64,000 nucleotides of DNA, from the NCBI GenBank assembly GCA_033065855.1, contig JAVXUO010000256.1:186001-250000 (forward strand). The letters are read 5' to 3'. Positions 960 to 50,192 of this stretch are shown here, piece after piece. Source of the stretch: Escallonia rubra (taxonomy: Eukaryota > Streptophyta > Magnoliopsida > Escalloniales > Escalloniaceae). The notes beneath the pieces were generated by a model. The model was not told the DNA's origin. It did not search any database and saw nothing but the letters and a program-made list of their open reading frames with translations. The position numbers were made by a program, and so were the translations under genes. Every line of letters begins with the position of its first letter. Position 1 is the stretch's first letter.

Positions 960-1545
960 TTAATCTTGGACAGTTGAACTGTATACAGTCGGGTATGAAG
1001 CTTGCATGGCAATGCCACAAAGGTTTTGGCCTTCCGGTGCGTCAATACCTCTTTGCATCCCAATGCACTCTTCTTCACCCCATCCCGTGCCCCACGAGTT
1101 CTTCACCAGCCAATACTTAGTTTCATCAGCAACGGTGCAATAGCCAACAGCTGTAACACCGTGGTCTAGGTCAGTGTCGCATTGTCCAGTAAAGACACCA
1201 CTAGAGTAGAATTGGAAGTCAGATCCCTTAGCATCAATGTCAACAGAGATTGGTTGCTTCGCAACGACTTTCAATGGTGTAGCCTCACTATGGCTGACAC
1301 TATTGGCTGGCACATCTTCGTGACCGCTTATCTTGGCCTCATGATTTGCTGCCTTGTTGGTGTTACAAGTACTATCAACTCCATCATATGGATAGTTGGC
1401 TTCTACAGAGAGGCCCTTTTTTGATGAAATCAAATGCGTTATCCATGAGAGCGCATCACAGCCTTGATCTTCACCACTTGTATCATAGTCTCCCAACTCT
1501 TGTTCTGATAGCGAGATTAACTTACCTATTTTTAGTTGGTTTGAG
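960..1545 (-). pseudogene. papain-type cysteine protease pseudogene (exon 2 remnant)
   Basis: This is a decayed copy of exon 2 of the protease gene at 2411-3558. It keeps the catalytic His context ([11 protein letters not shown]), the Asn motif ([12 protein letters not shown]) and the C-terminal QASYP block. The catalytic-Cys exon start (CGCCWAF) and all of exon 1 (signal peptide, inhibitory propeptide) are absent. The VDCDTSG motif of the intact gene reads GDYDTSG, so a disulfide cysteine is lost. Around 1430-1455 the frame is locally scrambled relative to the intact copy (ALSWITHL in place of GGLMDNAF). The C-terminus is extended past the usual end. Homology continues upstream of the longest open frame to about 1545 ([10 protein letters not shown] is still readable). 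It looks like a dead tandem duplicate and cannot make an active protease. Confidence 0.85.
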
Positions 1546-2410
1546 CGTGTGATTTATAATTTGCTTAAGAAGGGCCCTTACTCCTTTTGTCTCTTTAATT
1601 AGTCTGTATCATTAGTATGCGTGAAAGGATCTCTGTTGTTTAGTATAGAGTTGAACACTTCGTTTAGCTTCAACTGTTTTTACCGTGACGTTTTGTCCAT
1701 CCCTGTTGAGTTATGAATTGTACAGGAAGACTCTCGACGTACACTGCCGAGAGCTGTAACAAAATAAGTTTTTGGGTGCTTCAAGACGAGATCGATGACA
1801 CAGAAAGTATTCAAGATAGTTACACTCGTGAAGCTTAAGCATGGGGTGTGCCTAATACTAGTTGATTACTTGTTCTTTTAGTCCATAAAAATAGAATAGG
1901 ATTACTCGTGCTTGTTTATCATGAAGCGTACTCAATAATAGCAACATAATACATCTAAATTACAATCAGGGTAAATTTTGTTGATGTAGTGGTCCACCCA
2001 CAAGTTTGTCTAATTTACAGTCGTGGTAAATTTTGTTGATGTTAGGGTCCAAAATTTTGTCTAGATTGCAAGCCTCGATGGCGAGCTTTAAGATTCCTGC
2101 ATTCAGCCGTCGCACAAGCTATGTGGAGGAACGCTTTGACTTTTCGTGCCCCAAAGATGATCTATTCCACCCACCAACGCAACGTAATGTGGTCGTTAGT
2201 GTTTTGGACCATTATCTTGCTATAGGGTTTGTTGTGCAGACTATGTCATTCATGCATTTCTTTCAGTTTCTCGATACTTTTTAGTATCGTGTTTTACTTC
2301 ATAAACTCAAATACGTATTAAACAACTTAATGAACAGTCATTATCAAAATCGGATGTAAGCCGAGCTAGTATTACTTGAAAGTGGATAGTAGATGAAAGA
2401 CAATTGGATT

Positions 2411-3558
2411 CTATGCAATGGGGTACGAAGCTTGCATGGCAATGCCACAAAGGCCTTCTGGTGCATCAATACCCCTTTGCATCCTTATGTAGCCTTCTTC
2501 ACCCCATCCGGTGCCCCACGAGTTCTTCACCAGCCAGTACTTAGTTCCATCATCAGCAGTGCCATAACCAACAGCTGTAACACCATGGTCTAGATCAGTG
2601 CCGCACTCTCCTGTAAAGACACCGCTAGAGTAGAACTGGAAGTCGGATCCCCCAGCATCAGTGGCAACAGAGACTGGTTGACCGGCAACAGCTTTCAGTA
2701 GGGCAGTCTCACTATTGGCAGGCACATCTTCATGACCAGTTATCTTGGCTGCGTGGTTTGCTGCCTTGTTGGTGTTGCAAGTACTATCAACTCCTTGATA
2801 CGGATAGTTGGCTTCTGTAGACAGGCCGTGGTTCTGTTGGATGAAATCAAAGGCGTTGTCCATGAGACCGCCCTCACAGCCTTGATCTTCGCCACTTGTG
2901 TCGCAATCTACCAACTCTTGCTCAGAAAGCGAGATTAGTTTACCTGTTTTCAATTGCGTGATTCCTTCCATAGCTGCCACAGCCGAAAATGCCCAGCAAC
3001 ATCCTATATGTGAAATCAGTAAAAGGTAAGAACATTGTGGTATGGATGTGTATAAATTTGTCTCTGTGAGTTTGTGTGCGCTGGCGCACACAAGCTTGTG
3101 TGTTTTGGATACTTTGGTCTCTTACCACACTGGCCTTGATCCTTGATAGGTGTAACAGCTCCTTTCTTTCTCCAGTCCATGGAAGATGGCACGGCGGAAA
3201 AATTTTCGTACTTGAAGGACGTCGTTGATGTAGCGCACACATGGCTCTTGAACCTATTCCTCGTGGTCTTGAACTCTTCATTAGTGAGGTCCGCAAATTC
3301 GTTGATGCTTAGCTTGTACGACTTGTCATTGGCTCTGTTGAAGGATTCAATGTGTTCAACGTTTTCCTCGAATATCTTGAAACGCTTGTTCTTCTCATCG
3401 ACATCTTTGTACACACGACAATAACGAGCCATCCACTGCTCATGCTTCTTATGCATGGCTGCCTCAGGAAGCGAGCGAGCTGTAGCTTGAGAAGCTAAAG
3501 CTGCCAATAGGAAGAGCATTGCAAGGGAGATGCATTGGATCTGGGTTTTGGAAACCAT
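2411..3558 (-). CDS. senescence-type papain-family cysteine protease (SAG12/SAG39-like)
   Basis: Two exons are read: 3558-3126 and 3003-2411. The 122-nt GT-AG intron (3125-3004) is phase 1 and gives a 341-residue protein, the usual length for this family. Residues 1 to about 27 form a signal peptide. The I29 inhibitor propeptide follows with an ERFNIN-type helix and the [11 protein letters not shown] segment. The mature enzyme starts near VPSSMDWR. The exon junction falls inside the active-site motif QGQCGCCWAF, with catalytic Cys about residue 147, His about 284 (DLDHGV) and Asn about 305 (KNSWG). The Cys-Cys-Trp form is normal for the SAG12 branch. Known family members are papain-like endopeptidases of the secretory pathway and vacuole, active in senescence and remobilisation of protein. 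A broken copy lies 0.9 kb downstream on the same strand, which indicates a local tandem array. Which SAG12-clade member it corresponds to is not settled. Confidence 0.93.
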
Positions 3559-21119: not shown

Positions 21120-21836
21120 TGGAAACAAAGATGCAAGAAAGAGAGACTAAACAACAGTAGTAAAAAGTAAAAATGGATCAGCTACCTACTTTTGCTTGTC
21201 AAAAACAAAAATTCAAGTCTCAACAAACTGGTACAAGCAAGCACAAGTTATGAAATAATCTCATCAACCTGCTATATGTATCAAGCCTTTTGTTCATGAT
21301 GCATGGGAGTATAGCGCATAATGTTTCAACTATTCACCAAAAGCAAAAGAGAACACTTTGATCCCAAGTTGGCATCTTTTTTTCAAATCTTCATAATCTT
21401 AGGACGTGAGTTACCCACATTTTAAGGAGTTGTTTCCTCCTATCACAGCTGTTAACTTTCTTCTAAAATCAAAGTTCATAGGCCAATAAGTTTTGTAACG
21501 ATTAAACTTTTAGGTCAACTTGGGCTCATCCTATACATAGGTACGCCTTTTGTTGACACTTGACTCTCTTCTATCTCTCACATATATGGTATTAGAGCCT
21601 AAGATTGACAACATAACCCAGGCTGACTCTTGCGGTGATGTCAATCAGAAGAATGGTGGTTCTTAGCCGAGCAAGACTCTGTGGGGGAATTGAAAATTAC
21701 ATTAGTGAGAGATTGTCATGGCGAATGCTGAGTTCTGTCAGTCTTCCACATTGATTAAGTTTAAAATAAATTGGGCATACATTCATGATTAGACCCAAAA
21801 CTTATTGGTTTAAGCTTTTATGTCAAACTAGTACAG

Positions 21837-23017
21837 AGCATGTGCGTTGCACGTAAAAATAGTCGAGAATAATATTTGAAGTGATATTATTATCTTTTTT
21901 GGGATCAAAATAATGTAATTTAATTATATTCTTATTTCTTTTGTGACTTGTTTTAGAAAATGTATGTTTGATATTCGCAATTGTAATCAGTTCAACGTTT
22001 AGAAATATTATTTATAGGCTTCTTGATTGAAGAAATGTTTGATGGTACTGTTGAAATATAAAAGCAAATGGATGTGAGAAATTAAAAGAATGAATCTACT
22101 TTTTTGTTTTTGTAATCTGTTAAATTGGTTTATGGCTAAGATTTATAATTTTTAAGACAAGGTGTTTTACATTTCATCAATAAGAAATTCAAAACACCCT
22201 TCTTCAACTGTAATAACCGAACATATTTTCAGTTCAAATTGACATCATATTTAAGCTTTGTTTTTTATGCATATTTAACCCTTTTTCATTTTTTTCTGTT
22301 TTTTGTTTTTCCAACAATTTTTTGTTTCTTAATTGATTCTCACGTATTTCAGTTTCTTTATTTTGTTTTCTAGTCTTTCAATTGGTTAATTGTTTGCTAA
22401 CCTAAAAATGCAAGAAAAAAAAATCACACTTCTCATTAACCAGTTCAATATCTAATGTTTATTTCATTTTAACCAAATTAAAAAGAGAATAATAAAGGAA
22501 TTTCTTTGTTGTGTTTTTCTTTCTCATCATATTTTTTTATTTTTCAATGTATAGAATAGATTCATTACCTAATGTTCTTTTAATTTAATTAAAATTTAAA
22601 AGGGAGCAAAAAAAGAAGGATAAGAAAGTAATTGACGTAATTAACAGAGGACATAATCGTCCAAAAATTATTTACAACATTCATACTTTTATAGATAGTA
22701 TACACACGCGCACGCGCGAACACACACACATAAATATATTTTTTGCAACCACACATTTTGTTTCGCAATGTGTAAATTTAGGTTGAGATTAAATTTATGA
22801 TCTACTGTTCATTAAACGCATTACAAAAAAAAAACTAATTAGGGAAGGGTAGGTTGTCATTAGAATAACTAACGGATGGCAAAATCAGAAATGATTGCAA
22901 AGTTAGTAATTAATAATAGTATTTATGAAAGGGTAGAATTGTTATTAGAGTGATTAACGAAGGGCAAAAACGGAATAAAATTATTTACAAGATTCATACT
23001 TTTATAGGTAGTATAGA
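21837..23017 (-). mobile_element. non-autonomous Helitron
   Basis: Read on the minus strand, the element starts TCTATACTACCTATAAAAG at 23017, preceded by A. It ends CTAGT at 21837, followed by T. The 3' end is preceded by a small GTGC-AAC-GCAC hairpin about 10 nt before CTAGT. A 5' TC, a 3' CTRR-type end with hairpin and insertion between A and T are the classic Helitron marks. A second, near-identical copy of the 5' terminus lies inside at about 22680-22705, so it may be a composite of two related elements. There is no Rep/helicase. A related copy in the opposite orientation is at 48017-50192. Confidence 0.75.
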
Positions 23018-23806
23018 TTTAGCTAAAATGGGCATAAACTATTTTAGCTAGAATGTTAATTAGGCCGCCTTTGTTGCATATATTATACATATTTCTTCAA
23101 AAAAATGTTGAAATAGTTGGTCACATTCAGCTCTCACGTTGAAAACATTCGAGATTAACTCTGCTCTTTTGACTTTATAGCACTAACAATGCCAATAACC
23201 GCTAGAAATCAATGGTGAAGTCATCAAGAGCGTTGCCCTAAGTTAGGCCACTCAGCGAAAAATCAACGCCACGCTTCATCAACGTGACATGATCCTTTGT
23301 TTGGTTGTACATATAGACGAGACACAAAGCTTTGCAGACATCATTTCGTTGAGGAAATAATCATTTATGTTCACATTTGTCGCAAATTTTACCTTTACCA
23401 TTTTTTAATAAGTATGAAATTAATTAAACAGATATTTCATAAGTTGTCATGTGGAATTCGTTACAATTTATGGAACCGCGTTTTTTGAAATTAAGTGACA
23501 GAAATACGCAGCAAGCTTTTAGTCAGTGGTGCGTACATAAAGTTGCATTTTTTACATATTTTGATGACCCAAAAGATATCTAAATAAATTCTTCAAGTAT
23601 CTTAAATGGAAGATAATTCAACTGTGAGTTGAACTAACTTGAACATTTGAAATCCGACATAGGATGATTTAAAAATACTCAAATGAAGTTGAAAACGAAA
23701 TAAGAAATAGAAAGCATAAACATGTGACAGGTGGCAAAGTGCAATGAATGAAAAATATTCTTTAACTTTGAAATGCAAAAAATGAAAAAGCACTTTGAAG
23801 TACTTA

Positions 23807-30459: not shown

Positions 30460-31805
30460 AAGATAAAACCAACTACAAACTGGATATTACTAGTTACAAC
30501 AGGACAGACCTAACAAAATCAACCAATAAAAAACCAACACCAATCTGCAGCCGCAAATTCAAAGCTTAGACACCTGTCACCATCGCAACAACATCACCTC
30601 AGTCCCCGAGCAACCTCACCGATGTCGGAATCTCTACCATTTCAGTCCATAACACCGCCGCTGAGCTCCAGAGGGAGGGCGCCAACCAAAAAATGATTTT
30701 GTCCTCGCAACTGACTTAATCAGATCTCCCCTACCCAAGACCCCATCGGACTACCAACAACAACCTTTGCAGCCCCAAAAACTGCCATGACAACCTAGAC
30801 CTAATTAAGAACTTACGAAGGGAGTAGAATCTCCAACGTCACCATGAAATTAACCTACAATACCTTCCTAGAACATCGCCGGGGGGGGGGGGGGGGGGGG
30901 GGGAAGCACTATAAAAAAACCCTTGAAACTAGACTCACCCATCATCTCCTAACCATGTCGGAACTGCACTCACTGTCCGGACGAAGAAACCCACAAGACG
31001 CACCACAATCCAATCTACAAGCACCCAAATGCCCCAAACAACTTAATTCCAAATCAAACTCATAGCCATCACCAGCGTCGAATCCTTTAATTGGTTGGAC
31101 AATAATTTCGTCACAACGATCGTCAGCCAGCCGCCTTACCGTCACGACCTAGATCCAAAGAAACAACCCTAAAAACAGACATACAAGTCTCCTAACAACG
31201 ATGATCTACTCTACCACATCACCACCCACTGGAGAAAGCCGACGGCTGTCGTCACTTCAACGTATTTTTGTGAGTTATTTCTTTTGAAAGCATGGACAAT
31301 ACAAAGATAACTTGAGATTGATGGCATGGTGTGTGATTTTTTAAAAAGTATGGACAATGTATCATTACGGATTTTGATGAGCTTTGGCACTTTGACATAT
31401 GTGTATAAATAAATGATTGTAAAATAAAGGAAGAATATAAGAAAGATAAAAGTGGAAAAGTAGAGTTAAGGCCAGACGGCAGACGTATATTAACCGAATC
31501 CATAAAGTAGTTTGCATTTTCTTTTAACCTTGATCTATCATGGTGAATCTCAAGATGTTATTCTAGTGCAATTTACTTGTAATCTGTTTATAATCTCAAG
31601 ATGGTATTCTTGTTTATGATCGTGACCTCATGGTCACGATAATAATCATCATAATGATCATGGTGATTGTAATAATCTTGGTCATGATAATAGTTCAACT
31701 TCTAACCATGGATTAGCGCACGGTCATGATTCTGATTTTGGTCATAGTCAGATAGAATCATGTATTTGGTGTTAGTCATGGTTCTATTTTGATAACAATT
31801 GTTTT
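30460..31805. other. unit-2-specific block, unclassified repeat DNA
   Basis: This block is absent from unit 1, where ctaaatattatgctt bridges the gap near 20773. It holds a 23-G tract (30881-30903) and a degenerate catgat/catggt-rich tract (31610-31800). The tract plus the sequence that follows resembles 50340-51350. No terminal repeats or gene recognised. It could be an insertion in unit 2 or a deletion in unit 1. Confidence 0.45.
30881..30903. repeat. poly-G tract
   Basis: Twenty-three consecutive G residues directly after cgcc. Confidence 0.92.
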
Positions 31806-32135
31806 GTTTATGCTTATGACGATAGTTGATTCAAGAAGTTCAACCGATTAGTTCCTTTTGTTTTGCTAGTATTTGTTTCTTGCTCGATAATATTGTTTTG
31901 TCCTTCCATTTTGTTACGATTTACATGTGTTGTAATAATTTTGTGGTATTTGTGTTCTTTTTTAATGTGATGAACTAAGAATATATTCTTGCATATACAA
32001 CAAACTGATTCTTTAGTACTATACAGTTGTTTGATATTCTTTCCGTAGTGTCTTCACCACCTTTTGTAACTAAAACCACGAATGTCGCCTTTATTTTTTT
32101 CTCGATAAACAAAAGAAAAAACCGTTCTACCAAGA

Positions 32136-32153
32136 GGGGGGGGGGGGGGGGGG
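32136..32153. repeat. poly-G tract, unit 2
   Basis: Eighteen G residues, counterpart of the thirteen-G tract at 21107. Confidence 0.9.
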
Positions 32154-32829
32154 TTTGGAAACAAAGATGCAAGAAAGAGAAACTAAACAACAGTAGAAAA
32201 AAGTAAAAATGGATCAACTACCTACTTTTGCTTGTCAAAAAAAATAAAAATTCAAGTCTCAACAAACTGGTACAAGCAAGCACAAGTTATGAAATAATCT
32301 CATCAACCTGCTATATGTATCAAGCCTTTTGTTCATGATGCATGGGAGTACAGTGCATAATGTTTCAACTATTCACCAAAAGCAAAAGAGAACACTTTGA
32401 TCCCAAGTTGGCATCTTTTTTACAAATCTTCATAACCTTAGGACGTGAGTTACCCACATTTCAAGGAGTTGTTTCCTCCTATCACAGCTGTTAACTTTCT
32501 TCTAAAATCAAAGTTCATAGGCCAATAAGTTTTGTAACGATTAAACTTTTAGGTCAACTTTGGCTCATCCTATACATAGGTACACCTTTTGTTGACACTT
32601 GACTCTCTTCTATCTCTCACATATACAGTATTAGAGCCTAAGATTGACAACATAACTCATGCTGACTCTTGCGGTGATGTCAATCAGAAGAATGGTGGTT
32701 CTTAGCCGAGCAAGACTCTGTGGGGGAATTGAAAATTACATTAGTGGGAGATTGTCATTGCGAATGCTGAGTTCTGTCAGTCTTCCACATTGATTAAGTT
32801 TAAAATAAATTGGGCATACATTCATGATT

Positions 32830-33158
32830 AGGGAAGGGTATGCCCAATTTATATTTTTGCAACCACACATAAATATATTTTTTGCAACCACACATTTTGT
32901 TTCTCAATGTGTAAATGTAGGTTCAGATTAAATTTATGATCTAATGTTCATTAAACGCATTACCAAAAAAAAAAACTAATTAGGGAAGGGTAGGTTGTCA
33001 TTAGAATAACTAACGGATGGCAAAATCGGAAATGATTACAAAGTTAGTAATTAATAATAGTATTTATGAAAGGGTAGGATTGTTATTGGAGTGATTAACG
33101 AAGGACAAAAACGGAATAAAATGATTTACAAGATTCATACTTTTATAGGTAGTATAGA
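32830..33158 (-). mobile_element. Helitron remnant (5' part), unit 2
   Basis: The 5' terminus (TCTATACTACC read on the minus strand from 33158) and adjoining sequence match the unit-1 Helitron. The 3' portion with the CTAGT end is missing. Because the duplicated flank joins directly at ggaagggtatgcccaa, a deletion in unit 2 is the simpler reading. Confidence 0.6.
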
Positions 33159-33959
33159 TATAGATATAGATTTAGCTAAAATGGGCATAAACCATTTTAG
33201 CTAAAATGTTAATTAGGCCGCCTTTGTTGCATATATTGTACATATTTCTTCAAAAAAAATGTTGAAATAGTTTGTCACATTCAGCTCACATTGAAAACAT
33301 TCCAGATTAACTCTGCTCTTTTGACTTTATAGCACTAACAATGCCAATAACCGCTAGAAATCAATGGTGAAGTCATCAAGAGCGTTGCCCTAAGTTAGGC
33401 CACTCAGCGAAAAATCAACGCCACGCTTGATCAACGTGACATGATCCTTTGTTTCGTTGTACATATAGACGAGACACAAAGCTTTGCAGACATCATTTCG
33501 TTGAGGAAATAATCGTTTATGTTCACATTTGTCGCAAATTTTACCTTTACCATTTTTTAATAAGTATGAAATTAATTAAACAGATATTTCATAAGTTGTC
33601 ATGTGGAATTCGTTACAATTTATGGAACCGCGTTTTTTGAAATTAAGTGACAGAAATACGCAGCAAGCTTTTAGTCAGTGGTGCGTACATAAAGTTGCAT
33701 TTTTTTACATATTTTGATGACCCAAAAGATATCTAAATAAATTCTTCAAGTATCTTAAATGGAAGATAATTCAACTGTGAGTTGAACTAACTTGAACATT
33801 TGAAATCCGACATAGGATGATTTAAAAATACTCAAATGAAGTTGAAAACGAAATAAGAAATAGAAAGCATAAACATGTGACAGGTGGCAAAGTGCAATGA
33901 ATGAAAAATATTCTTTAACTTTGAAATGCAAAAAATGAAAAAGCACTCTAAAGTACTTA

Positions 33960-46861: not shown

Positions 46862-48016
46862 ATCCTTTTATGGAGGTTTGCTTAGTCCCTTCCACATTGT
46901 AAGTTTGTGAATTTTTTACCCGAAAATCCTCAAGCAAAGTTCGTACGTTGGCCAAGAAGAATCGAGATTGTAACATGGGCAGCTAATTTATATCCAGATT
47001 TGTTGTTGTAGTATAAACTTTAGTATTTAGTTTCAGCGTTACGAAGGTTCTGTTGTAGCGTTAAGTTCGGCTAGTCTGAAGAAAATGATCGGTTAATTTT
47101 ATTCCTCGGCAAAATCTGTAGCCACTGCTAAAATTCGTTTCGATTTCTATGCCAGTTAGTTTGGCTTCTCGGTTCTGCTAGTGTTTTCAGCTATGATATT
47201 GTGCCGACTTACGAGATAGATGCAAAGAAGAGAAAATATATAGAAATTCAAGGAATAAACGTGTAGATATGCCATGAAACAAACATACACAAATTGAGAA
47301 GATATTATGGTATGGTAAAGAAGCAAACTAAGCAACATATAGTTGTTCTTTTTATATAAATGTTAGTCACCGTGATGCACCCGATATGCGTGTAAAAATA
47401 AACTTATGAATATGAATTTTGTTAATTATAATCAAGCATCACGAATAAGTGCTAATTGTCTCATTCAGTAAAATGAGTTAAATTGTAAAAACGAAACGTA
47501 TCCTTATATGTAGTTATCCGTTTGACATAAATTGATCTTTTTTTTTTACACGCAGAGAGGACATATATTCTGTGTTTCTCATTCTACCCTTTAGACAAAG
47601 GACGAGAAGAAAGTAGACCAGGAGAAAGAAAATGAGTTAGTGAAGTGTTAAATATGGAAAGAAAAATAGAATAAGAAATTGTAAGAAAGTGAGTCAGGAG
47701 AGAGAAAAATGAATTGATGGAGAGTTAAATGTCGAGAAATAAGTTGAATAAAAAAAGAATAAAAAGGGTAAATATATAAAAATACCTACAAAATATTTTT
47801 TAATTTGAGAATGAGTAATTTTATGGGACGATCCAAAGAAGAAATATGATCAATTTTTATGGGACGGAGGAATTGTTATTTAAATATTTGTATTTTGTGT
47901 TATTTTCTAAGAACTTTTTAATGATACCAATTGTCAACATTTTAAATAAATAGTTACGCCGAAAAAGGGTGTTACACCAAAAGAACTATTTTCTTTATAT
48001 ATAGTATAGATATAGA
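46862..48016. other. GAUT10-like 3' flank with a Stowaway remnant
   Basis: The first 300 bp should include the 3' untranslated region; no clear polyadenylation site can be fixed. From about 47575 to 47872 the sequence ends in tttttatgggacggagga, the right terminal word of a Stowaway-like MITE whose left end I could not place. No gene is seen. Confidence 0.45.
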
Positions 48017-48874
48017 TCTATACTACTTATAAAAGTATGAATGTTATAAATCATTTCTGAACGATTTTGTCCTCCGTTAATTACTTTAATAACATTTTTA
48101 CCTACACTTTATGACTCCCTTTTAAATTTTGTTGAAATTAAATGAACATTAGATACAATGAATCTATTCTAAACATTGAGAAATAAAAAGTATTATGAGA
48201 AAGATATATAGAAATCCATTTATTACTCCCTTTTTAATTTGGTTGAAATGAAATAAACATTGGATAATTAATTGGGTAATAAGAATTGTGATTTTTTTCC
48301 TTGCAAAAGCTGAAAAACAAACAAACAAACTGAAATACGTGAAAAATCACTTCATAAACAAAAAATTGTTGAAAAAAAAACGAAAAACAAGGTTAAATAT
48401 GCATAAAAAATGTGGGTGGGGGGAGGCTTAAATATGGCCTCAATTTGAACTTAAAATCTATTCAGTTATTGCAGTTGAAGACCAGATGCTTTGCATGATG
48501 TACAACATTCGTATTTTGAAATGCAAAGTACCAACTGGTCTTGAAAATTACAAATACCATACACCATTTTAACATATTACAAAAATGGTTAATTACAAAA
48601 CTATCATCTGAGATTTACACGTTTTTGCACTTTGTCCCCCGCATTTTAAACTTTTACATAATAATGTCCCTCTAAGTTGACAAAACCGTTGCAAATAGCT
48701 CCAAAATTGGACGTCCGTTTAATTTTGGACGTTAAGTGATCATGTGCAGTGCACATGCCATTTTGGCATGGGCAAATTTATAATTTTCCTTACATCATCT
48801 TCGCCACTGTGAAATTTGGAAAAAAAAAAGAATAAAACCCATTTGAAATGTAAAGGGCATTAGTATGTAAAGGT

Positions 48875-48979
48875 ACCCTCTTTGTCCTCAATTTTGGACT
48901 TGAGATTCTCAATGGTGTCGCCAGATTCCACCTCCATATTGATGGTCTTGCCGGTGAGAGTCTTCACGAAAATCTGCAT
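48875..48979 (-). pseudogene. captured ubiquitin 5' fragment
   Basis: Starting at the ATG at 48979 the minus strand reads [20 protein letters not shown] and then [15 protein letters not shown]. These are the first 35 residues of ubiquitin with several substitutions (for example NM for TL after KTI). After EGT the frame leaves ubiquitin and stops. The Lys48 and C-terminal Gly-Gly regions are absent, so it cannot be conjugated. Some 5' leader sequence of the donor gene appears to be included upstream of the ATG. Confidence 0.9.
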
Positions 48980-49080
48980 TTTCTCTTCTCTGCCGATTTC
49001 TCAAGGTTTTAGGGTTTATGTGACTAGGCACCTTACTCCGACCATCAAACGCCTTTGCTTCATCTTTCGTGGAAGATGCC

Positions 49081-49600
49081 GACGACATCGCTCCAATCAC
49101 CGGACCACGTGATTTCTTCAGGGAATTTGCCGTGGAGTCCAAGAAGCTTTAGTACCTCGCTGGCCCGACCATCTTCACCGGCGTCTGTCACTACTCGCTC
49201 GACGCCGTCACCCAGATCGACCTTCGCCGGCAATGTCAGCACCCTGGCGCTGGCCGCCTTCTCCATCGAGAACTCCATCATCGCCAGCTTCTCTTTCGGC
49301 ATCATGGTATAAAATCTTTAATCCCCTGTCACTTTTCATCCACGGGTTAAAGTTCATGTCATGGATTAATGGCTGTTTCGGCTACTCCTGCCGTAGTCTT
49401 AAAATAGAAATGTTTATCCAAAAAGGCCCAAACACTTTACTTATGATACTACCAAGTTAACTACTTGATCAAAACTTTTTCGAAACGTTCCTGTTTCTGA
49501 AGGCATGTTTTTGGATTTTGTGTGATAAATCACGTTGAAATCTTACCAGCTCGTCATGGGGAGCACACTCGAGACATTGTGTGGACAAGCATACGGAGAG
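49081..49600 (+). pseudogene. captured MATE (DTX) transporter fragment with intron
   Basis: The plus strand reads DDIAPITGPRDFFREFAVES and KKL, a stop, then YLAGPTIFTGVCHYSLDAVT. After a frame change it reads FAGNVSTLALAAFSIENSII and ASFSFGIM (to 49305). A GT-AG intron (49306-49549) follows, and the next exon reads LVMGSTLETLCGQAYGE. This is the N-terminus, first helices and the MGSALETLCGQAYG motif of plant MATE/DTX efflux carriers, with the exon boundary where the motif is normally split. The rest of the transporter is missing. Confidence 0.85.
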
Positions 49601-50192
49601 AGAGATGAACACAGTGGGGCCTTAGCCTATGATCTTGAGGGTTTTGCCGTATGAGAGAGAGAGAGATGAATAGAGAGATAAGAACATAATGGGGAAGAAG
49701 AGGTAGGAAAATTACAAATTTGCCCATGTCAAAATGGCATGTGCACCGCACATGATCACTTAACATCCAAAATTGAACAGACGTTCAATTTTGGAGTTAT
49801 TTGCAACGGTTTTGTCAACTTCGAGGGACATTATTGCAAAAGTTGTAAACACGGAGGGCAAAGTGCAAAAACGTGTAAACTTCAGGGAACAATTTTGTAA
49901 TTAACCCTTACAAAAATAAAGATACAGATTCATTCTTTTAATTTCTCCATTTACTCTTTTTATCAGGAGTACCATCAAACATGTCTTCAATTCAGAAATC
50001 TACAAAGAAGATTTTCAAACACTGAATTCATTACAATTACGAATATCAAATATACATTTATTCTAAAACAAGTTAAAAAAGAAATAAGAATATAATTGAA
50101 TTATATTATTTTGATCACAAATAAGCTAGTGATATTACCTCAAAAATTACTCTCGACAACATTTTCGTTCAACGTACGTGTTTCGTACTAGT

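What the first reader, a model, noticed from the sequence alone, without database searches (positions are those of the whole stretch)
48017..50192. Three-layer nesting: a Helitron holding a Pack-MULE that holds ubiquitin and MATE gene pieces
The outer element has the TC start, CTAGT end and A/T flanks of a Helitron. Inside, an element with ~200-bp inverted arms and a perfect 9-bp duplication (TTACAAAAA) carries the first 35 ubiquitin codons on the minus strand and an intron-containing MATE transporter N-terminus on the plus strand. Fusion of a ubiquitin leader to a transporter fragment inside one mobile unit is a possible source of chimeric transcripts or antisense RNA. Gene capture by Pack-MULEs is established; this combination and the nesting are read here.
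Basis: partly seen in the sequence, partly recalled or inferred. Interest (0 to 1): 0.72.

Follow-up and report, generated by a model that had tools for sequence, protein, structure and literature searches.

The report
Gene-carrying plant transposon inside another transposon
A small jumping gene, carrying broken pieces of a ubiquitin gene and a transporter gene, has landed inside an older jumping gene of a different type; the structure is real and well supported, but it is an ordinary kind of thing and cannot make a ubiquitin-transporter fusion protein.

Summary
The anatomy is confirmed. A non-autonomous Helitron (48017-50191) contains a Pack-MULE (48586-49907) with ~224-bp inverted ends and a perfect 9-bp duplication. 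Nine relatives of the Helitron, one of them in this window, have the target site uninterrupted. The host genome (566 Mb) holds 12 copies of the ubiquitin-MATE element at 10 independent sites, so it has transposed as a unit. Candidate donors for both pieces lie on separate contigs: a divergent ubiquitin-L40-like gene (exon 1 plus the start of intron 1) and a DETOXIFICATION-type MATE gene (inside exon 1, intron 1, start of exon 2). Eight further elements with the same ends carry other pieces of that MATE gene, and no ubiquitin match was seen in any of the eight, which suggests that MATE was captured first and ubiquitin added in one branch. The 'fusion' reading fails: the pieces lie head to head on opposite strands, the MATE start codon is missing, the window copy has a stop, and 10 of 11 full copies carry a 4-bp frameshift. 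No clear coding constraint was seen; expression could not be tested. This is a well-documented new member of a known kind.

The parts
48017..50191 (+). Outer non-autonomous Helitron (A|TC ... CTAG|T), interrupted by the MULE
   Evidence: 39 of 44 matching stretches, window included, start at query base 1-3 (40 of 1163 candidates scored); 8 fetched relatives: A|TC in 6 of 8, CTAG in 6 of 8 plus CTAA in one; base check
48577..48585 (+). Left copy of the 9-bp target site duplication TTACAAAAA
48586..49907 (+). Pack-MULE with ubiquitin and MATE pieces
   Evidence: TIRs, TSD, empty sites, 12 copies in the genome
48586..48811 (+). Left terminal inverted repeat
48808..48876 (-). Start of ubiquitin donor intron 1 (GT splice donor kept)
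   Evidence: 215 of 231 columns identical to C2066 for the whole ubiquitin piece; splice donor in copies
48877..48979 (-). Ubiquitin exon 1: codons 1-34 and first base of codon 35
   Evidence: Pfam ubiquitin E 1.3e-9
48980..49034 (-). 5' leader of the ubiquitin donor, ending at a CTT that the MATE donor also has
49035..49306 (+). Part of MATE exon 1 without the donor start codon; TAG at 49150-49152, 4-bp insertion near 49216-49219
   Evidence: 247 of 268 aligned bases identical to C1843
49307..49549 (+). MATE intron 1, GT-AG kept
49550..49598 (+). Start of MATE exon 2
49599..49684 (+). Tail, unassigned in this copy; the MATE match runs further into exon 2 in C1852, C1109, C489, C358 and C1195
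49685..49907 (-). Right terminal inverted repeat
49908..49916 (+). Right copy of TTACAAAAA
21826..22705 (-). Second copy of the Helitron family in this window, without the MULE; empty site at 22107-22115

Best explanation
A Mutator-like transposase acting in trans moved a 1.3-kb non-autonomous Pack-MULE into TTACAAAAA inside an older Helitron; repair of the staggered cut made the 9-bp duplication. The cargo was built earlier. A MULE with these ends took in the 5' part of a MATE (DETOXIFICATION) gene as genomic DNA, intron included; in one branch a second capture joined exon 1 and the start of intron 1 of a ubiquitin-L40-like gene, head to head, in place of the first part of the MATE piece. That composite then spread by transposition to about ten sites. 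The cargo of this copy is decayed passenger DNA with no demonstrated product. Shown by computation: ends, duplications, empty sites, copies, donor matches, orientation, frame damage. Inferred: trans-acting transposase, capture by template switching, order of capture, lack of function.
For: Nine MULE-free Helitron relatives have the target uninterrupted, TTACAAAAA in eight and TTATAAAAA in one. Twelve ubiquitin-MATE copies (29 of 29 candidates scored), 10 independent sites after two pairs with related flanks are merged. The 9-bp duplication is perfect and abutting at 7 of the 10 sites, perfect but set off by one extra T at C950, 8 of 9 at C358 and 7 of 9 at C1852. Donor matches: C2066 (215 of 231 columns) and C1843 (510 of 619 columns; 247 of 268 in exon 1), neither with these TIRs in the 6.5 and 6.0 kb read. 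CTT shared by both donors at the junction. Eight further elements with the same TIRs carry pieces of the same MATE gene between donor positions 2042 and 2723. MATE-bearing elements that cover them share states against the donor at 2253, 2254, 2290 and 2434, whereas AA at 2235-2236 is in 11 of 11 of the ubiquitin branch and in none of the 5 others that cover it. Coding decay. MULE transposase domains, many in long open frames, are abundant in the genome (150 of 3309 candidates scored).
Against: No autonomous partner with these TIRs was found; only one transposase locus was read (L087, 4.7 kb) and it has no matching ends. Ubiquitin-derived columns outside CG/CHG context vary less than the rest (25 of 186 against 156 of 709, Fisher p 0.01; in CG/CHG context 20 of 33 against 174 of 236, p 0.15), which could hint at constraint, although ubiquitin coding and non-coding parts behave alike (10 of 86 and 15 of 100). 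Counted per copy, ubiquitin exon changes are 21 synonymous and 16 not, but shared changes count repeatedly there. Shared differences from C1843 may be changes of the donor after capture (at 2369 a degenerate paralogue agrees with the captured state). C1957 and C1853, two MATE-only elements, show no clear 9-bp duplication.
Confidence: 0.93

Rival explanations
1. The cargo works as a source of antisense or small RNA: read-through from the ends makes RNA against the ubiquitin-like donor and the MATE donor.
For: Each of the 11 full copies shares 58-118 perfect 21-mers with the ubiquitin donor and 38-109 with the MATE donor. In the head-to-head layout, reading from either end makes one piece antisense. 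A passage of an introduction says Pack-MULEs possibly encode small RNAs (PMC8277862, passages).
Against: Two loci with canonical ubiquitin (L044, L045) share 0-3 and 0 such 21-mers with each of the 11 copies, so ubiquitin in general would not be hit.
Confidence: 0.12
2. The cargo makes a new spliced protein of about 111 residues: an internal ATG (49076) reads exon 1 out of frame until the 4-bp insertion restores the MATE frame, then splices to exon 2.
For: A spliced frame of 109-111 residues with GT-AG is open in 5 of 11 full copies (window, C1370, C950, C847b, and C489 with a different tail) and in the truncated C847a; Pfam MatE E 1.1e-7 for the window version.
Against: Not in the other 6 of 11: early stops in C1504, C1852 and C1195, splice acceptor lost in C1359, C358 and C1195, out of the MATE frame in C1109 (sites read from one alignment). 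Wrong-frame reading of G+C-rich DNA is often open.
Confidence: 0.03
3. The MATE pieces were taken up in several separate captures from one hot donor gene rather than once.
For: MATE pieces in related elements have many different boundaries.
Against: Elements that cover them share states against the donor at 2253, 2254, 2290 and 2434, and the ubiquitin-MATE junction is the same in the 11 full copies and C847a. But those states could be those of the donor at the time of capture.
Confidence: 0.1
4. The outer element is not a Helitron and its ends are chance.
For: No significant 3' hairpin fold in this copy (z -0.37) or in window copy B (z -0.22); the exact hairpin sequence is in 4 of 8 relatives only.
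Against: Relatives share the start and end bases (6 of 8 A|TC, 7 of 8 CTRR followed by T); 39 of 44 matching stretches start at query base 1-3.
Confidence: 0.03

Closest known systems
Pack-MULEs (multicopy, of rice and other plants)
   Same: Long TIRs, 9-bp TSD, captured gene fragments with intron, no transposase, donors on other contigs, spread to several sites. [quoted passage not shown]
   Different: The particular pair of genes, and the insertion in a Helitron.
Pack-TYPE elements with cargo from several loci
   Different: Here the second piece is confined to one branch of a family whose other members seen carry only MATE pieces.
Non-autonomous Helitrons of plants
   Same: A|T target, TC 5' end, CTAG 3' end, and in some relatives a hairpin near the 3' end (family features recalled; sites seen).
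   Different: The hairpin is decayed in this copy, and the element is split by the MULE.

Membership tests
Pack-MULE | Long terminal inverted repeats of one MULE family | tested here: met
   226- and 223-bp arms, 86%; right arm gave 1665 first-look candidates in the genome, 40 scored, 40 matches
Pack-MULE | 9-bp target site duplication | tested here: met
   Window copy perfect; at the 10 family sites 7 perfect, 1 perfect with one-base offset, 2 imperfect; empty sites
Pack-MULE | Captured host gene fragments, no transposase | tested here: met
   Donor matches C2066 and C1843; longest ORF in the interval 85 aa
Pack-MULE | Moved by a MULE transposase whose element has the same ends | tested here: inconclusive
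   MULE transposase domains abundant, but the single locus read lacks these TIRs
Helitron | Insertion between A and T; 5' TC, 3' CTRR | tested here: met
   Window copy; relatives 6 of 8 at the 5' end, 7 of 8 at the 3' end
Helitron | Short hairpin just before the 3' end | tested here: inconclusive
   CGTGCAACGCACG exact in 4 of 8 relatives; no significant fold in the window copy or copy B
Helitron | Rep-helicase of an autonomous relative | not tested
   Element is non-autonomous; partner not sought
Ubiquitin-transporter fusion gene | Both pieces in sense in one reading frame | tested here: not met
   Opposite strands; MATE start absent; stop and frameshift

The most novel reading that the evidence does not exclude
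The ubiquitin-MATE composite is a multicopy trans-acting silencer: its roughly ten head-to-head copies give rise to small RNAs that tune the divergent ubiquitin-L40-like gene on C2066 and the MATE gene on C1843, and the low variation of the ubiquitin part reflects that role.
Probability: 0.06. Interest if true: 0.5.

Novelty: new member of a known kind. Interest (0 to 1): 0.24.

Why it matters
It is a clean worked case of stepwise gene capture by a Mutator-like element: donor matches, empty site, sibling copies and relatives that look like other stages are all in one genome. That makes the order of capture testable. It does not create a plausible new protein, so its wider importance is small.

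Tried and rejected
Fusion protein: rejected by strand and frame. Coding constraint on ubiquitin exon 1: 25 distinct changes against the donor in 11 copies, 10 synonymous and 15 not, with 73% non-synonymous expected under neutrality (per copy 21 and 16); C1852 has a 1-bp deletion; no clear signal. Lower variation of the ubiquitin part at non-CG/CHG sites is noted but is not specific to coding. Autonomous partner: one MULE transposase locus was read, no matching TIR. L086 (C1749), fetched as a possible longer element, holds three arms of this family, no MATE match and no ORF over 120 aa. MATE paralogue as outgroup: C2121 is degenerate and usable at one diagnostic site only; another weak MATE match, C2122, was not examined. 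The sigma-70 scan is for bacteria and was ignored. Ubiquitin exon 1 was first translated one base out of frame and redone; the first spliced translation used a wrong exon-2 start and was redone. Paper searches and look-up gave nothing useful. In print: the listings of searches show no title on a ubiquitin plus MATE Pack-MULE; most listed papers were not opened, and of three papers only passages were seen.

Full report
Observation. The inverted arms (48586-48811 and 49685-49907) align at 86%, far beyond shuffled arms (score 161, maximum of 300 shuffles 23). Both are flanked by TTACAAAAA (48577-48585, 49908-49916). The outer element begins A|TCTATACTAC at 48017 and ends CTAG|T at 50191.

Empty sites. 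The same window holds a second copy of the outer element on the minus strand (21826-22705) without the MULE; the two aligned halves overlap by exactly nine bases. Eight further copies, chosen from the best-scoring places, also have an uninterrupted target: TTACAAAAA in 7 of 8, TTATAAAAA in L081. Of these eight, A|TC at the 5' end is seen in 6 and CTAG in 6, with CTAA in one; CGTGCAACGCACG shortly before the 3' end is exact in 4 (L076, L078, L079, L080). That is the Helitron pattern (recalled: A/T target, TC start, CTRR end, 3' hairpin). In the window copy and in copy B the hairpin does not fold better than shuffles.

Family. The host genome (G000, unnamed, 566 Mb, 3222 contigs; taken to be a flowering plant from its gene and transposon content, an inference) holds 12 copies with the ubiquitin-MATE junction (29 of 29 candidates scored): C142 (window), C1370, C950, C847 twice, C1504, C1359, C1852, C1109, C489, C358 and C1195. 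C847a/b (right flank 98.6%) and C1109/C489 (flanks 80% and 94%) are segmental duplicates, leaving 10 independent sites. The 9-bp duplication is perfect and abutting at 7 of 10 (window, C1370, C847, C1504, C1359, C1109/C489, C1195), perfect but offset by one T at C950, 8 of 9 at C358 and 7 of 9 at C1852. No match to this Helitron was found in the 13 other loci checked. The element therefore moved as a unit, and the nesting is one insertion.

Donors. The ubiquitin piece matches C2066:108337-108563 in 215 of 231 columns. That locus encodes [35 protein letters not shown], a second exon, and LRLRGG followed by a diverged L40-like tail. The captured part is exon 1, which ends at the splice donor in codon 35 as in two loci with canonical ubiquitin (L044, L045), nearly 70 bases of intron 1, and about 55 bases of leader. 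The MATE piece matches C1843 in 510 of 619 columns including intron 1, and 247 of 268 bases in exon 1. The part of C1843 read as peptide (300 residues from two exons) matches Pfam MatE (E 1.1e-33) and Protein DETOXIFICATION structures (7dqk, E 3.7e-60). The donor ATG is at 2108 and the captured part starts at 2191. Both donors have CTT at the junction.

What it can encode. Ubiquitin is on the minus strand and MATE on the plus strand, their coding parts about 55 bases apart. No transcript can join them in sense. The window copy has TAG at a tryptophan codon of the donor, and 10 of 11 full copies carry a 4-bp insertion (C1109 differs). A spliced frame of 109-111 residues from an internal ATG, with GT-AG, exists in 5 of 11 full copies (window, C1370, C950, C847b, and C489 with another tail) and in the truncated C847a, not in the other six. 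Ubiquitin exon 1 shows no clear constraint.

History. One search (32 of 32 candidates scored) listed other MATE matches. All eight of these with fetched loci (C1957, C1853, C2130, C1639, C898, C1626, C442, C1035) lie between the same TIRs. Nine more rows carry only a ~55-bp piece; one of the nine (C1392) was fetched and also lies between these TIRs. The pieces of the eight fall between donor positions 2042 and 2723; in three (C898, C1626, C442) the match begins upstream of the donor ATG, in sequence that the ubiquitin branch lacks. No ubiquitin match was reported in any of the eight: the six were searched with the ubiquitin piece, C1957 and C1853 with the whole element (stretches over 50 bases shown), C1957 again, and neither of these two shares a 21-mer with the ubiquitin donor. 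MATE-bearing elements that cover the sites share states against the donor at 2253, 2254, 2290 (10 of 11 in the ubiquitin branch) and 2434, while AA at 2235-2236 is in 11 of 11 of the ubiquitin branch and in none of the five others that cover it. The simplest history is one MATE capture, later reshuffling, and addition of ubiquitin in one branch. Loss of ubiquitin in the others is not excluded, and the donor may have changed since (site 2369).

Verdict. Pack-MULEs with several copies and Pack-TYPE elements with cargo from several loci are described (PMC8277862 passages; PMC8903248 passages), and nested insertions are common, there of other elements inside MULEs (PMC3903597 passages). This is a new member of a known kind.

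Noticed in passing
window 21500-23400 (-) and 31400-33500 (-): Two paralogous segments about 10 kb apart; only the first carries Helitron copy B, so the pair may show a loss or gain of that element.
   Followed up: partly
window 22702-23021 and 32873-33180: Helitron 5'-end-like sequence (TCTATACTACC...) lies again some 300 bp upstream of copy B, and at a similar distance in 16 of 20 fetched loci, the window's own included: the common element seems to have a doubled 5' end.
   Followed up: partly
window 47517-47868: Arms beginning TCCGT and ending ACGGA, 30 nt long and 292 nt apart, look like a small inverted-repeat element beside the Helitron.
   Followed up: no
L074 (C2066) about 1049-2509 (-): The ubiquitin donor is a divergent ubiquitin-L40-like gene with several changes in otherwise near-invariant ubiquitin and a poorly conserved L40 tail.
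   Followed up: partly
G000, C1749:327737-329484, C1673:123056-124569, C1452:383302-385049: Neighbouring head-to-tail copies of the Helitron family.
   Followed up: no
G000: Many MULE transposase matches with 777-783-residue open frames of near-identical score, suggesting a recently active family.
   Followed up: no
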